From the NCBI GenBank assembly GCA_028871595.1, contig JAGWMT010000051.1, positions 1 to 15,745 on the forward strand: a stretch of 15,745 nucleotides of DNA, written 5' to 3'. Position numbers and translations under genes: made by a program. This document shows, piece after piece, positions 7,630 through 15,569 of this stretch. The stretch is from Elusimicrobiota bacterium. GTDB lineage: Bacteria; Elusimicrobiota; Elusimicrobia; UBA1565; UBA9628. The stretch's first letter is position 1; the number at the start of each line of letters is the position of its first letter. A model generated the notes under the pieces. The model saw nothing but the letters and a program-made list of their open reading frames with translations. It was not told the origin of the DNA and did no database searches.

Positions 7630-7929
7630 TCAGTTGGTGTAGCCGATCTTGTGGAAGCGCACGCCGTAGCGGCGCTGGCCCGCGACGGGCGCGCCCACGT
7701 GGCGCACCTCGCCCCGGATTTCGATCTGGGTCGGAAGCTTCAGGTGAAGGGTCATTCCCTGCTCGAGCAGGGCGTCGCTCTTGAACGTCATGCCGCCCCG
7801 CGACAGGTCGGTGATGACGCCGCGGCAGCGGCCCGCGGCCTCGCCCGAAAGACGGATCTCGAACGCCGCGCCCACGGCGGTGCGGGGGTGGCGTCTCTGC
7901 TCCGGTGCGGCGAAGGTCTTATCGGTCAA
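7630..7929 (-). CDS. PilZ-domain c-di-GMP receptor, inside the atp operon
   Basis: This 99-residue protein consists of one PilZ domain. The two ligand motifs are complete: RxxxR as QRRHPR (Arg12 and Arg16) and DxSxxG as DLSRGG (Asp41, Ser43, Gly46). PilZ proteins with both motifs usually bind cyclic di-GMP. Beta strands after this (MTLHLKL, EIRGEVRHVG, YGVRFHKI) finish the barrel. No other domain is attached, so it would act through a partner. TTG 7929 is the start, with AAGGAG 6 nt upstream; no in-frame ATG nearby is better. It starts 24 nt after the atpG stop and ends 16 nt before atpD, on the same strand, so it is transcribed with the ATP synthase. Single-domain PilZ proteins often control motility or polysaccharide machinery; a link to ATP synthase is inference from position. 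Confidence 0.93.
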   Translation of the reverse strand: MTDKTFAAPEQRRHPRTAVGAAFEIRLSGEAAGRCRGVITDLSRGGMTFKSDALLEQGMTLHLKLPTQIEIRGEVRHVGAPVAGQRRYGVRFHKIGYTN

Positions 7930-7953
7930 TGGAGTCTCCTTGAAATGGGTCCG

Positions 7954-8853
7954 TCAGCCCGCGAGCGCCTCGGCGCCGCCGACCAGCTCCGCGATCTCCT
8001 TGGTGATCAGCGCCTGGCGCGTGCGGTTGGCGGTCAGGTTCAGCGCCTGGCGCAGCTCCTTGGCGTTCTTGGAGGCGGCGTCCATGGCGTTCATGCGCGC
8101 GGCCAGTTCGGCCGCCTGCGACTCGAGAAGGATGCGGTACACCTGCGCCTTGACGTGGCGCGGCAGCAGCGCCGACAGCAGCAGCCCGCGGCCCGGCTCG
8201 AAGCCGAAATCCGGAAGGACCACCGTCTCGGGCACCCGCTCCGGCGTCGGGATGGGCAGGAGCGCCGACGTCAGCAGGCGCTGTTGGGCCACCGACTTGA
8301 ACTCGTTATAAAGGACGGTGACCTTCGCCACGCCCTTCTTGAGGTAGGCGTCGATGACCGCGGCGCCGACCAATTCGGCGTGCGCGTATGTGATCTTCGG
8401 GAACACGCCCGCCAGCTCGGAGACGATCTCGATGTCGTGCCCGCGCAGGCGGTTCACCATGTCGCGGCTCTTGCGCCCGACCGCGACGCAGTACGTCTTG
8501 CGCCCGGCGCGGGCCTTGAACCACTCCAGCGACGCGCGCAGGACGTTGGCGTTGAAGGCGCCGCACAGGCCCTTGTCGCCGGCGACGATCACCAGCAGCT
8601 CCGGGCCCTCGGTCCGCTTCTCGAAGAACGGGTGCAAGGTGCTGACGCGGCCCAGCTCCAGGTCCTCGCGCTCCTGCACCAGCGCCAGCTCGCGCACCAT
8701 GCGCTCCATCTTCGACGCGAACGGCCGGGAGGACAGGATCGCGGTCTGCGACCGGCGCATGCGCGCGGCCGCGACCATCTTCATGGCCTTGGTGATCTGC
8801 TCGGTGGACTTGACCGACTTGATCTTGGTGCGCAGTTCTCTGAGCGATGCCAT
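7954..8853 (-). CDS. atpG: F-type ATP synthase subunit gamma
   Basis: Gamma is the rotating central shaft. The 299-residue protein has the diagnostic N-terminal coiled-coil helix (MASLRELRTKIKSVKSTEQI, then KAMKMVAAARMRR) and the C-terminal helix (NAMDAASKNAKELRQALNL, then NRTRQALITKEIAELVGGAEAL). Between them, VIVAGDKGLCGAFNAN is the conserved Rossmann-like turn. ATG 8853 has GGAG 6 nt upstream, located inside the end of the epimerase gene. Only one base separates it from that gene's stop, so its translation may be coupled to the epimerase rather than to atpA. Confidence 0.97.
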   Translation of the reverse strand: MASLRELRTKIKSVKSTEQITKAMKMVAAARMRRSQTAILSSRPFASKMERMVRELALVQEREDLELGRVSTLHPFFEKRTEGPELLVIVAGDKGLCGAFNANVLRASLEWFKARAGRKTYCVAVGRKSRDMVNRLRGHDIEIVSELAGVFPKITYAHAELVGAAVIDAYLKKGVAKVTVLYNEFKSVAQQRLLTSALLPIPTPERVPETVVLPDFGFEPGRGLLLSALLPRHVKAQVYRILLESQAAELAARMNAMDAASKNAKELRQALNLTANRTRQALITKEIAELVGGAEALAG

Positions 8854-8854
8854 A

Positions 8855-9766
8855 TCAGACTCCGACGGCGGTCTTGCCGCCCGCGATGTAGTCCTGGATC
8901 CCGCGCTCGGCCGTCCACTGCGCCGCGAAGCCGAAGGCCTTGCGCGCCTTGGCGGGATCGCCCAGGGTCTCGTTCTGGAAGAACGAGTACGGATTCTTGA
9001 AATACTCGGGGGCCAGGCCGGTGCCCAGCGCCGCGTTCAGGGCGGCGATGACGGCGTTGAAATCGGTCTTGCGGCCGGTGCAGCAGTTGTAGACGCCGGG
9101 CGCGGCCTTCTCGAAAGCCTTGAGGTTCGCGTCCACCACGTCCTTCACGTAGATATGATCGCGATACTGCTCGCCGAACTCGAACACGCGCGGTCGCCGG
9201 CCGGCCTTCATCTGCAGGGACAACTGCCAAATCATGCTGGCGTACTTCTCTTTATGCGCTTCCCGGGGGCCGAAGACGTTGAAGTAGCGCAGTCCGACGG
9301 TCTTGACGCCCTTGGCGTTCGCCGCCACCGTCTCCATGACCGCCTTCGAGAACGCGTACACGTTCAAAGGTTTCGGGGTCGCATCTTCCCGATGCGGGAC
9401 CGGAAGATCTCCGTAGGTGCCCGCCGAGGAGGCGTAGACGACTTTCTTGACCTTCGACTTCGCGGCCCAACCGAGAAGATCGCGGAAGGCCTCGACATTG
9501 ACGCGCATCATTTTGCGCTGGTCCATGACCGTCGTGTCGGTGATGGCCGCCTGGTGGAACACGGCGTCGATCTTGCCGACGCGCGGAGCCCAGTACGACA
9601 CGTCGCCGACGTCGGCCGCGATGACGTCGCCGGCGAAGCCCTGCAAATTCTTAAACGTCCCGACCGACATGTCGTCCACCACGACCACGTCCCACCCGCG
9701 CGCGGATAATTCCCAGCTGAGATTCGAGCCGACGAAACCCGCGCCGCCGGTGACGAGAGCTCTCAC
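8855..9766 (-). CDS. HldD-like NAD-dependent sugar-nucleotide epimerase (extended SDR)
   Basis: A 303-residue short-chain dehydrogenase. TGGAGFVGS (6-14) is the NAD(P)-binding loop. YASSAGTYG (111-119) and Tyr137-x3-Lys141 (VYAFSK) form the catalytic core. RYFNVFGPREAHKEKYAS (160-177) closely matches the block in ADP-L-glycero-D-manno-heptose-6-epimerase (HldD/RfaD), including a Lys after the PRE(A/G)H segment that serves in its two-base mechanism. YRDHIYVKDVV and the C-terminal GDPAKARKAFG motif fit too. An HldD role would place it in heptose supply for LPS inner core, yet other epimerases of this clade cannot be excluded. GTG 9766 overlaps the previous gene by 4 nt (GTGA); the frame is open further upstream, but the Rossmann start VRALVTGG fits this start. 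It sits between atpA and atpG, which is unusual. Confidence 0.9.
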   Translation of the reverse strand: MRALVTGGAGFVGSNLSWELSARGWDVVVVDDMSVGTFKNLQGFAGDVIAADVGDVSYWAPRVGKIDAVFHQAAITDTTVMDQRKMMRVNVEAFRDLLGWAAKSKVKKVVYASSAGTYGDLPVPHREDATPKPLNVYAFSKAVMETVAANAKGVKTVGLRYFNVFGPREAHKEKYASMIWQLSLQMKAGRRPRVFEFGEQYRDHIYVKDVVDANLKAFEKAAPGVYNCCTGRKTDFNAVIAALNAALGTGLAPEYFKNPYSFFQNETLGDPAKARKAFGFAAQWTAERGIQDYIAGGKTAVGV

Positions 9767-14534: not shown

Positions 14535-14551
14535 TTCGGCGACGACGGGCC

Positions 14552-14580
14552 ATTCTATGAATTGTAGGGGCACCTGTCAA
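14552..14580 (-). promoter_or_regulatory. ATP synthase operon promoter
   Basis: The minus strand has TTGACA (14575-14580), a 17-bp spacer and TAGAAT (14552-14557), one base from the sigma-70 consensus. It lies in the gap shared with the divergent REC-GGDEF gene. The expected start of transcription is near 14545. A second -10-like TATCCT on the plus strand (14598-14603) with CTGTCA (14574-14579) may serve the divergent gene but is weak. Confidence 0.78.
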
Positions 14581-14609
14581 TTTCGCGGAAAAAGGGCTAT
14601 CCTCAGGCC

Positions 14610-15569
14610 GTGAGCGACGTGGCCCGCGGACCCGCCCGAATCCTGATCGCCGACGACCTTCCCGACCTCCTTCAGGCCTTGAAGGAGACCCTGGAACGGG
14701 AGGGCTACGCCGTGGAAGCCGTCCCGGACGGCGAGGCGGCGCTGGCGTCCATCCGCGTCGACCCGCCGGACATCGCGGTGCTGGACCTCAAAATGCCGCG
14801 CATGACCGGTTTCGAGGTGTGCCGCGCCCTGCGCGCCGATCCTTTGCTGGAAAACCTGCCGGTGGTGATCCTGTCGGCTTCGGGCAGCCGCGAGAGCCGC
14901 GTCGAGGGCCTGGACCTGGGCGCCGACGACTTCATCACCAAGCCCGTGGACATCCGCGAGCTGCTGGCGCGCATCCGCATGATCCTCAAGCGCACGCGCC
15001 AGGGCTTGGACGCCAATCCGCTGACGCGGCTTCCCGGCAACCTCTCCATCGAGTCGCGCATCGACCGGGCGCTGGCCGAGCAGCGCCCCGTGGCCGTGCT
15101 GTACGTGGATTTGAACCAGTTCAAGGCGTACAACGACGCCTACGGCTACGACGCCGGCGACCGCGTGATCAAGACCTTGGCGCGCGTGCTGGTGGACCAG
15201 GTCCGCGCCGGGGGCGACGCGGACTTCATCGGCCACATCGGCGGCGACGACTTCATCGCGCTGAGCACGCCGGACCGGATGGAGAAGGCGGCGGCGAAGA
15301 TCTGCGCGGACTTCGACGCGGTGGTCCCCTCCTTCTATAGCGAAGAGGACCGCAAGCGCGGGAGCATCGTGGCCAAGGACCGGCAGGGAAACACGCGCGA
15401 GTTTCCCCTGCTGTCGGTGTCCGTCGGCATCTGCCACAACCGCGAGCGGCCGCTGAAGAACTTCGCGCACGTCGCCACGTTGGGCGCGGAACTGAAGAAA
15501 GCCGCGAAGGCCAAGCCCGGCTCGTCCTACGTGGTGGACCGCCGCCGCGCCGACGACGTCAGCCGGTAG
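14610..15569 (+). CDS. Response regulator with REC and GGDEF domains (putative diguanylate cyclase)
   Basis: The 319-residue protein has two domains. The receiver has acidic pair Asp15-Asp16, phospho-acceptor Asp59 (VLDLKMP), Ser89 and Lys111 (ITKP). The GGDEF-type domain spans about 137-310: VLYVDLNQFKAYND (163-176) with metal-binding Asp167, and a signature GGDDF at 211-215 in place of GGDEF/GGEEF. The acidic positions are kept but shortened at the fourth, so cyclase activity is probable but not certain. No RxxD product-inhibition site is found (GxxD). The GTG start at 14610 leaves only about 37 nt to the atp promoter. Convergent overlap of 43 nt with the downstream gene. It may be activated by an unidentified kinase and may supply c-di-GMP to the PilZ protein in the atp operon. 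Confidence 0.93.
   Translation: MSDVARGPARILIADDLPDLLQALKETLEREGYAVEAVPDGEAALASIRVDPPDIAVLDLKMPRMTGFEVCRALRADPLLENLPVVILSASGSRESRVEGLDLGADDFITKPVDIRELLARIRMILKRTRQGLDANPLTRLPGNLSIESRIDRALAEQRPVAVLYVDLNQFKAYNDAYGYDAGDRVIKTLARVLVDQVRAGGDADFIGHIGGDDFIALSTPDRMEKAAAKICADFDAVVPSFYSEEDRKRGSIVAKDRQGNTREFPLLSVSVGICHNRERPLKNFAHVATLGAELKKAAKAKPGSSYVVDRRRADDVSR

What the first reader, a model, noticed from the sequence alone, without database searches (positions are those of the whole stretch)
7630..15569. c-di-GMP receptor co-transcribed with ATP synthase, and a REC-GGDEF gene sharing the operon's promoter gap
A PilZ protein with intact RxxxR and DxSxxG motifs lies between atpG and atpD, and a response regulator with a GGDDF domain is transcribed divergently from the same gap as the atp promoter. 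In most bacteria atpG is followed directly by atpD. The pairing suggests that c-di-GMP made by a signalled cyclase may be sensed by a receptor expressed with, and possibly acting on, ATP synthase. Function is inference; the motifs and layout are seen.
Basis: partly seen in the sequence, partly recalled or inferred. Interest (0 to 1): 0.75.

Follow-up and report, generated by a model that had tools for sequence, protein, structure and literature searches.

The report
c-di-GMP receptor gene inside ATP-synthase operon
In many uncultured Elusimicrobiota bacteria a small protein that looks built to bind the signal molecule c-di-GMP is encoded between two core genes of the cell's ATP-making rotary enzyme, which suggests, but does not prove, that the signal adjusts energy production.

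Summary
A 99-residue stand-alone PilZ protein with both c-di-GMP motifs lies between atpG and atpD. At least 47 of 340 Elusimicrobiota genomes have a PilZ gene there, across deep lineages. Purifying selection resembles that on atpG. The motifs are intact in the window and 46 of 46 relatives checked, and 18 of these 46 overlap atpG or atpD by ATGA. None of 37 readable operons of other phyla has it. The divergent REC-GGDEF neighbour is also conserved: 26 of 29 testable PilZ-bearing relatives of the window's clade, with a promoter-like site in 21 of 26 gaps.

Three corrections. The cyclase motif is GGDDF, non-canonical, so cyclase activity is unproven. PilZ and the GGDDF gene are inherited separately. 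The operon also carries hldD and a secreted-type gene between atpA and atpG, so unrelated genes do settle in it.

My best reading is a c-di-GMP-responsive accessory factor of F1Fo (brake, clutch or assembly factor), like PilZ brakes on flagellar motors. Binding is likely; action on ATP synthase is an inference at about 0.45, and a residue-association test gave no support.

The parts
7630..7929 (-). stand-alone PilZ-domain protein, 99 aa, between atpG and atpD; RxxxR and DxSxxG intact
   Evidence: PF07238 E 1.9e-12; both motifs in the window and 46 of 46 atp-linked relatives; AlphaFold2 beta barrel, pLDDT 82; Foldseek to PilZ domains, probability 1.00
7954..8853 (-). atpG, F1 gamma subunit
   Evidence: ORF; homologues in 299 of 340 phylum genomes
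6189..7613 (-). atpD, F1 beta subunit
   Evidence: ORF; 69-93% identical in the PilZ-bearing relatives of the window's clade
5732..6178 (-). atpC, F1 epsilon subunit
   Evidence: ORF; position and similarity in relatives
8855..9769 (-). hldD-like ADP-glyceromanno-heptose 6-epimerase between atpA and atpG
   Evidence: TIGR02197 274.7 bits, cut-off 274.6; same place in 85 of 102 readable relatives
9763..10215 (-). hypothetical protein with a signal-peptide-like N-terminus (by eye), overlaps the hldD start
   Evidence: no Pfam or NCBIfam match; homologues at the same place
10212..11723 (-). atpA, F1 alpha subunit
   Evidence: ORF and similarity
11725..12255 (-). atpH, F1 delta subunit
   Evidence: ORF and similarity
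12255..12764 (-). atpF, Fo b subunit
   Evidence: ORF and similarity
12850..13134 (-). atpE, Fo c subunit
   Evidence: read by eye from the sequence and the longer ORF 12850-13848; the atpE query was in a wrong frame and is not used
13200..13952 (-). atpB, Fo a subunit
   Evidence: ORF and similarity
13958..14353 (-). probable atpI-like membrane protein
   Evidence: position; no Pfam match; homologues in part of the relatives
14289..14534 (-). atpZ (ATPase_gene1), start re-assigned to the ATG at 14534
   Evidence: PF09527 E 6.9e-15; start lies downstream of the conserved -10 box
14552..14580 (-). predicted atp promoter TTGACA-N17-TAGAAT
   Evidence: pattern TTGACA-N16-19-TANNAT in 21 of 26 homologous gaps against 0.0004 per shuffled gap
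14574..14603 (+). predicted weak divergent promoter CTGTCA-N18-TATCCT whose -35 overlaps the atp -35
   Evidence: similar pattern in 11 of 26 gaps; 8 of 12 consensus bases; no shuffle control, and CTGTCA is partly forced by TTGACAG on the other strand; prediction only
14610..15569 (+). response regulator with REC and GGDEF-type domain (GGDDF), GTG start
   Evidence: PF00072 E 1.9e-30 and PF00990 E 2.1e-17; GGDD[FY] in 34 of 34 sequences, the window and 33 relatives

Best explanation
The gene makes a stand-alone c-di-GMP receptor of the PilZ family, encoded so as to be produced together with the F1 subunits gamma and beta. It most likely works as an accessory regulator of F1Fo ATP synthase (brake, clutch or assembly factor): when c-di-GMP rises it is bound through RxxxR and DxSxxG, the protein changes shape, and F1 activity or assembly is altered, as MotL, YcgR and MotI do on flagellar motors. 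Shown here: position, conservation, motifs, predicted fold, purifying selection, gene overlaps in many relatives. Inferred: c-di-GMP binding (about 0.85) and ATP synthase as the target (about 0.45). The divergent REC-GGDDF gene is a conserved neighbour that may supply or sense the nucleotide, but it is not needed for PilZ to be kept.
For: A PilZ gene lies between atpG and atpD on the same strand in 46 of the 51 genomes with a PilZ hit among 340 plus G007. R12, R16, S43 and G46 are identical in 47 of 47 (window and 46 relatives); position 41 is D in 44, and every sequence has [DN]xSxxG. On the AtpA+G+D tree presence needs 7 changes against 34.4 in shuffles. dN/dS of pilZ is 0.06-0.40 in 14 pairs, like atpG at 0.07-0.33. 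ATGA-type overlaps with atpG in 7 and with atpD in 12 of 46 relatives, 18 genomes in all. First-copy atp-PilZs of the window's kin and of G178-181 group together (46 rows, 92/86) apart from the paralogues tested. Fold matches to Alg44, BcsA, VCA0042, YcgR and MotI PilZ domains, many solved with c-di-GMP. Precedent: MotL is a stand-alone PilZ protein whose gene is always downstream of motB in the Shewanella species that have it, and it regulates that motor (PMC8203827, passages).
Against: The operon tolerates unrelated inserts: hldD and a hypothetical between atpA and atpG, and other open frames between atpG and atpD in G005, G172 and G174. So PilZ could be a passenger. It was lost about four times in the window's clade without any detectable compensating change: one candidate column in AtpG, no more than control groups give. 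No PilZ-F1 fusion was seen (atp-PilZ proteins are 99-126 aa). Foldseek E-values are at best 1.6e-3. All of this is sequence; nothing on binding, expression or activity was testable.
Confidence: 0.45

Rival explanations
1. Passenger receptor: PilZ is a genuine c-di-GMP receptor that uses the atp promoter, but it acts elsewhere (envelope, LPS or polysaccharide, type IV pili, gliding). Its place reflects an old insertion kept by descent.
For: Other non-ATPase genes are carried in the same operon: hldD (85 of 102 readable relatives) and a secreted-type hypothetical, and different open frames at the atpG-atpD site in G005, G172 and G174. hldD, an LPS-heptose enzyme, points to envelope biology. No F1 residue follows PilZ loss.
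Against: The PilZ stays exactly between atpG and atpD while other parts of the operon vary. ATGA overlaps tie it to gamma or beta in 18 of 46 relatives. In five genomes the site holds two PilZ genes in tandem (G178, G179, G180, G182, G183).
Confidence: 0.38
2. Energy-to-signal coupling in the other direction: PilZ made in step with ATP synthase serves as a c-di-GMP sink or titrator, so that free c-di-GMP falls when ATP synthase is strongly expressed.
For: Gene overlaps with F1 genes imply many copies per cell (inference). The 18 genomes checked have few GGDEF matches, 2-7 each, so a sink could matter.
Against: No data on abundance. A sink does not explain conserved residues outside the c-di-GMP motifs such as H93, 46 of 47.
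Confidence: 0.1
3. One reading: the REC-GGDDF protein makes c-di-GMP that is read by the PilZ protein to control ATP synthase.
For: Divergent neighbour in 26 of 29 testable PilZ-bearing relatives of the window's clade, overlapping predicted promoters, REC residues intact in 32-33 of 33 aligned rows and substrate-binding N and D in 32 of 34. A GGDDF enzyme, GSU1937, was active in a fusion and its deletion lowered a cGAMP reporter (PMC8835794, passages).
Against: GGDDF is non-canonical, and PA3258 with GGDDF fails to raise c-di-GMP (PMC8835794). GGDDF gene without PilZ in 13 outgroup operons. PilZ without it upstream of atp in G178, G179, G186, G194 and G230. Distances of the two proteins correlate at 0.26 only. 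Among PilZ-less members of the clade 2 of 7 testable keep it near atp, though G213 and G217 keep a copy on other contigs.
Confidence: 0.2
4. Assembly or annotation artefact, or a decayed PilZ.
For: The relatives that bear names are draft metagenome assemblies; G217 has lost the domain and keeps a 22-codon remnant.
Against: Same arrangement in 47 separate genomes, one of them on a 3.8-Mb contig (G205); purifying selection; 222 protein clusters match the window PilZ.
Confidence: 0.01

Closest known systems
MotL of Shewanella putrefaciens (PMC8203827, passages read)
   Same: stand-alone PilZ protein with both c-di-GMP motifs, encoded next to the genes of a rotary machine and thought to act on it
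   Different: machine is the lateral flagellar motor, 144 aa, downstream of motB; here the neighbour is F1Fo ATP synthase and no action is shown
YcgR / MotI flagellar brakes and clutches (search listing, and passages)
   Same: PilZ domain that binds c-di-GMP; fold match to 5y6g, 5y6f and 5vx6
   Different: they carry an N-terminal YcgR domain, absent here
c-di-GMP control of rotary export ATPases FliI and HrcN (PMC4591828, abstract and passages)
   Same: c-di-GMP acting on rotary ATPases; that these resemble F1 beta is general knowledge, recalled
   Different: there c-di-GMP binds the ATPase itself; here a separate receptor protein would be the intermediary; that text does not contain the words ATP synthase
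MgtC and the F1F0 ATP synthase of Salmonella (one sentence in PMC9275015, printed there as MtgC)
   Same: accessory protein linking ATP synthase to a c-di-GMP-related trait (cellulose)
   Different: not a PilZ receptor; further detail only recalled
PleD / DgcR-type REC-GGDEF diguanylate cyclases
   Same: REC plus GGDEF architecture; PleD is the best PDB match
   Different: GGDDF instead of GG[DE]EF, and no RxxD inhibitory site at the usual place in 33 of 34

Membership tests
PilZ c-di-GMP receptor | PF07238 above the curated cut-off | tested here: met
   47.8 bits against 22.5
PilZ c-di-GMP receptor | RxxxR and [DN]xSxxG motifs | tested here: met
   window and 46 of 46 atp-linked relatives; motif residues also invariant among the window and 36 of the 120 listed protein clusters that were aligned
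PilZ c-di-GMP receptor | beta barrel of known PilZ domains | tested here: met
   AlphaFold2 pLDDT 82.1, pTM 0.68, six strands; the 28 best Foldseek hits are PilZ proteins, probability 1.00, but E at best 1.6e-3
PilZ c-di-GMP receptor | binds c-di-GMP | not testable with these tools
   needs purified protein
REC-GGDEF diguanylate cyclase | phosphorylatable receiver domain | tested here: met
   D15, D16, D59 and K111 conserved in 32-33 of 33 aligned rows, G205 left out
REC-GGDEF diguanylate cyclase | [GAS]G[DE]E[FY] catalytic signature | tested here: not met
   GGDD[FY] in 34 of 34, GGDDF in 33; signature as quoted in PMC8835794
REC-GGDEF diguanylate cyclase | substrate Asn and guanine-selective Asp (Ser in Hypr cGAMP enzymes) | tested here: met
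   NDxYGxxxGD in 32 of 34; GN in G216 and G235; the equation with the PleD positions is recalled
REC-GGDEF diguanylate cyclase | RxxD inhibitory site five residues before the motif | tested here: not met
   present in 1 of 34; that it is not essential for cyclase activity is recalled
REC-GGDEF diguanylate cyclase | makes c-di-GMP | not testable with these tools
   GGDDF proteins in print: one active in a fusion, one without effect (PMC8835794)
PilZ motor brake (YcgR/MotI/MotL) | YcgR N-terminal domain | tested here: not met
   99 aa, PilZ only; MotL also lacks it
PilZ motor brake (YcgR/MotI/MotL) | binds its rotary machine in a c-di-GMP-dependent way | not testable with these tools
   no complex modelling or pull-down available
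HldD ADP-heptose epimerase | TIGR02197 equivalog cut-off | tested here: met
   274.7 against 274.6 bits, only just

The most novel reading that the evidence does not exclude
Elusimicrobiota control their F1Fo ATP synthase by the second messenger c-di-GMP through a dedicated PilZ subunit-like protein, co-translated with gamma and beta, that acts as a brake or clutch on the rotary enzyme and so ties the sessile-motile switch directly to energy conservation.
Probability: 0.3. Interest if true: 0.92.

Novelty: new variant of a known kind. Interest (0 to 1): 0.64.

Why it matters
Regulation of ATP synthase by a nucleotide second messenger through a dedicated receptor did not appear in the papers searched (open-licence PMC only, judged from listings and abstract starts). 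If it is true, c-di-GMP, best known for switching between motile and attached life, would also set the turnover of the cell's main energy converter. The protein is small and ready for binding and pull-down tests, and closely related operons with and without it exist (G216 and G217), so the question is directly testable. Even if PilZ proves to be a passenger, it is a conserved re-wiring of an operon usually thought to be rigid.

Tried and rejected
Single-genome oddity: rejected, a PilZ gene is at this place in at least 47 of 340 genomes.

Degenerate PilZ: rejected on motifs and dN/dS.

Hypr cGAMP synthase: considered because GSU1937 with GGDDF is a Hypr enzyme. Not supported, since the Hypr Ser position is Asp in 32 of 34 and Asn in 2.

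Known RNA family such as a c-di-GMP riboswitch in the window: none reached Rfam's gathering score; only the 16S rRNA end did. Relatives were not scanned.

F1 residues that change with PilZ loss: none beyond controls. One AtpG column (window position 237) changed in 3 of 4 loss lineages; one of five control sets also gave one column in AtpG, and two gave one in AtpD.

Mirror-tree correlation over 38 genomes: PilZ with AtpG 0.60 and with the epimerase 0.66, against 0.83 for AtpG with the epimerase; PilZ with the GGDDF protein 0.26, AtpG with it 0.46. The first two fit vertical descent but are not specific; the low value for PilZ and GGDDF speaks against a tight pair (the broken G205 frame may lower it).

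PilZ and GGDDF as an obligate pair: rejected.

Tandem GGDEF genes beside the outgroup atp operons: I first read extra tblastn hits that way; a check showed they match only the receiver half of the query, so they are receiver-only proteins at most.

PDB sequence search with PilZ: no match at E 0.01.

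
Full report
What is there. The window is an Elusimicrobiota contig by its relatives: the closest named loci and proteins are called Elusimicrobia. The 5' end of a 16S rRNA gene lies at 1-345 on the minus strand. No whole genome is held for it. On the minus strand from 14534 down to 5732 runs an F1Fo ATP synthase operon: atpZ, an atpI-like gene, atpB, atpE, atpF, atpH, atpA, a secreted-type hypothetical, hldD, atpG, pilZ, atpD, atpC, followed by a cupin gene. On the plus strand at 14610 a REC-GGDEF gene starts.

The PilZ gene. It encodes 99 residues, is only a PilZ domain (PF07238, 47.8 bits against a cut-off of 22.5) and has R12xxxR16 and D41LSxxG46. 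It begins 24 bp after atpG and ends 16 bp before atpD. AlphaFold2 gives a six-stranded barrel (pLDDT 82.1). The best Foldseek matches are PilZ domains such as Alg44, BcsA, VCA0042, YcgR and MotI, many solved with c-di-GMP, at probability 1.00 but with E no better than 1.6e-3.

Distribution. A search with the window PilZ over the 340 held genomes of the phylum hits 51 at E up to 1e-5. Reading the DNA around them, 46 of 51 lie between atpG and atpD on the same strand; for the other five (G176, G236, G333, G335, G340) the hit lies where no atp gene was found. A profile search of further loci adds G007. In all I read 106 relatives around their atp genes; in 105 both atpG and atpD are readable (not in G016): 47 with PilZ between them and 58 without. 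This set is not random: 46 were fetched because they had a hit, the rest were chosen by me from AtpG hits, so 47 of 340 is a lower bound. In 74 loci of other phyla, 37 with both genes readable, no PilZ was found. These loci were picked by AtpG similarity and the profiles were built from Elusimicrobiota PilZs, so I do not claim that the arrangement is absent everywhere else. In the protein collection 222 clusters match, the best 120 listed; the six listed with an organism name are all Elusimicrobiota or Elusimicrobia.

Age and selection. On a tree of AtpA, AtpG and AtpD (104 relatives and the window) PilZ presence needs 7 changes, against 34.4 on average when labels are shuffled. In the window's clade (48 rows, support 94, window included) 37 have it and 11 do not, which needs four losses if the ancestor had it. 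One loss is recent: G217, a close relative of G216, keeps only a 22-codon in-frame remnant ending in the PilZ C-terminal tail. G175, G182 and G183 (with PilZ) and 32 relatives without it join the clade at an unresolved fork. A distant group, G178-G181, has PilZ as well, and so do the separate branches G007 and G173. First-copy atp-PilZs of the window's kin and G178-181 form one group of 46 (92/86), apart from the paralogues tested; the places of G007, G173 and the tandem second copies are unresolved. dN/dS in 14 pairs is 0.06-0.40 for pilZ, 0.07-0.33 for atpG and 0.04-0.25 for atpD. R12, R16, S43, G46, G58, G73 and G89 are identical in 47 of 47 sequences (46 relatives and the window), and H93 in 46. 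In 18 of 46 relatives pilZ overlaps atpG (7) or atpD (12, one genome both) by four bases; start codons were assigned by script as the one nearest the expected place. The window itself has no overlap.

The REC-GGDDF neighbour. It is divergent from the operon in 26 of 29 window-clade relatives that have PilZ and enough upstream DNA: 24 directly adjacent and two with an insert of 1.4 or 2.6 kb (G198, G197). G186, G194 and G230 lack it there, within 5, 5 and 3 kb of upstream DNA. Among the window and 33 relatives GGDD[FY] is kept in 34 of 34, the substrate Asn and guanine-selective Asp in 32 of 34, and the receiver residues in 32-33 of 33 rows compared. GGDDF is outside the usual signature. PMC8835794 (passages) reports one active GGDDF enzyme, a cGAMP-making Hypr protein from Geobacter tested as a fusion and by deletion, and one GGDDF protein, PA3258, without effect. 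The window protein lacks the Hypr serine. So it may make c-di-GMP, or may be a GTP-binding sensor; I cannot decide. Homologues at 49-52% identity stand upstream of atp in 13 outgroup operons that have no PilZ, in 11 of the 13 with one or two further receiver-only hits on the side towards atp; G178 and G179 have PilZ without it there. The two features are therefore old but separable. Among PilZ-less clade members 2 of 7 testable keep it near atp (G221 at 1.25 kb, G235). G213 and G217 keep a copy on another contig, and G224 and G226 have none at E 1e-30; the G217 atp contig is too short to tell whether its copy is a neighbour.

The shared gap. In 21 of 26 gaps (window, 24 PilZ-bearing relatives and G235) there is TTGACA-N16-19-TANNAT reading into atp, found in 0.0004 of shuffled gaps. 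In 11 of 26 a weaker CTGTCA-N-TA element reads into the GGDDF gene with its -35 overlapping the atp -35; this second pattern had no shuffle control and is partly forced by the first. If both are real, RNA polymerase cannot sit on both at once. This is sequence prediction only.

How it may work. The most economical reading is a receptor made in step with F1. MotL of Shewanella is the closest precedent: a stand-alone PilZ gene always downstream of motB in the species that have it, with full motifs, acting on that motor (PMC8203827, passages). By analogy the atp-PilZ would be a c-di-GMP-dependent brake, clutch or assembly factor of the ATP synthase. Against this, the operon tolerates unrelated genes. 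hldD sits between atpA and atpG in 85 of 102 readable relatives, with or without PilZ, and G005, G172 and G174 carry other open frames at the atpG-atpD site (read by eye, no family search). A search for F1 residues that change with PilZ loss found nothing beyond controls. I therefore give 0.45 to an action on ATP synthase and 0.38 to a co-expressed receptor that acts elsewhere.

Novelty. Searches of open-licence PMC papers for PilZ, c-di-GMP, ATP synthase and Elusimicrobi- listed no paper that I could recognise as describing a PilZ gene in an atp operon or a PilZ protein on F-type ATP synthase; I judged this from titles, abstract starts and one passage. Known relatives are PilZ motor brakes and the direct binding of c-di-GMP to the export ATPases FliI and HrcN (PMC4591828, abstract and passages). 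I rate it a new variant of a known kind, with a bold reading that would be more than that.

Noticed in passing
window 8855-9769: An ADP-heptose epimerase (hldD) gene lies between atpA and atpG, and does so in 85 of 102 readable relatives, more widely than PilZ; why LPS-heptose synthesis is tied to ATP synthase is unexplained.
   Followed up: partly
window 9763-10215: A secreted-type protein without a Pfam or NCBIfam match is found between atpA and hldD in many relatives of the window's clade and overlaps the hldD start.
   Followed up: partly
L195 (G217), gap between atpG and atpD: PilZ domain deleted but a 22-codon ORF with the C-terminal tail of the G216 PilZ remains in frame between atpG and atpD.
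   Followed up: partly
L215 and L217 (G172, G005), atpG-atpD gap: A retropepsin-like (by eye) open frame and a beta-barrel-like secreted one occupy the site that holds PilZ in other lineages; L216 (G174) has the second one.
   Followed up: no
L206, L208, L212, L213, L237, L238, L240, L242-L245: In outgroup Elusimicrobiota one or two hits that match only the receiver half of the REC-GGDDF query lie between the REC-GGDDF gene and the atp operon, perhaps CheY-like genes.
   Followed up: partly
window 5240-5728: A cupin-domain gene follows atpC and is 80-88% identical in 12 close relatives but was not found in the loci of more distant ones.
   Followed up: no
window 827-1813: Protein with a match far below cut-off (65.6 bits, cut-off 390) to AttM-type lactonases.
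   Followed up: no
window 15570-15745: Minus-strand ORF end that looks by eye like a winged-helix response-regulator C-terminus, convergent with the REC-GGDDF gene.
   Followed up: no
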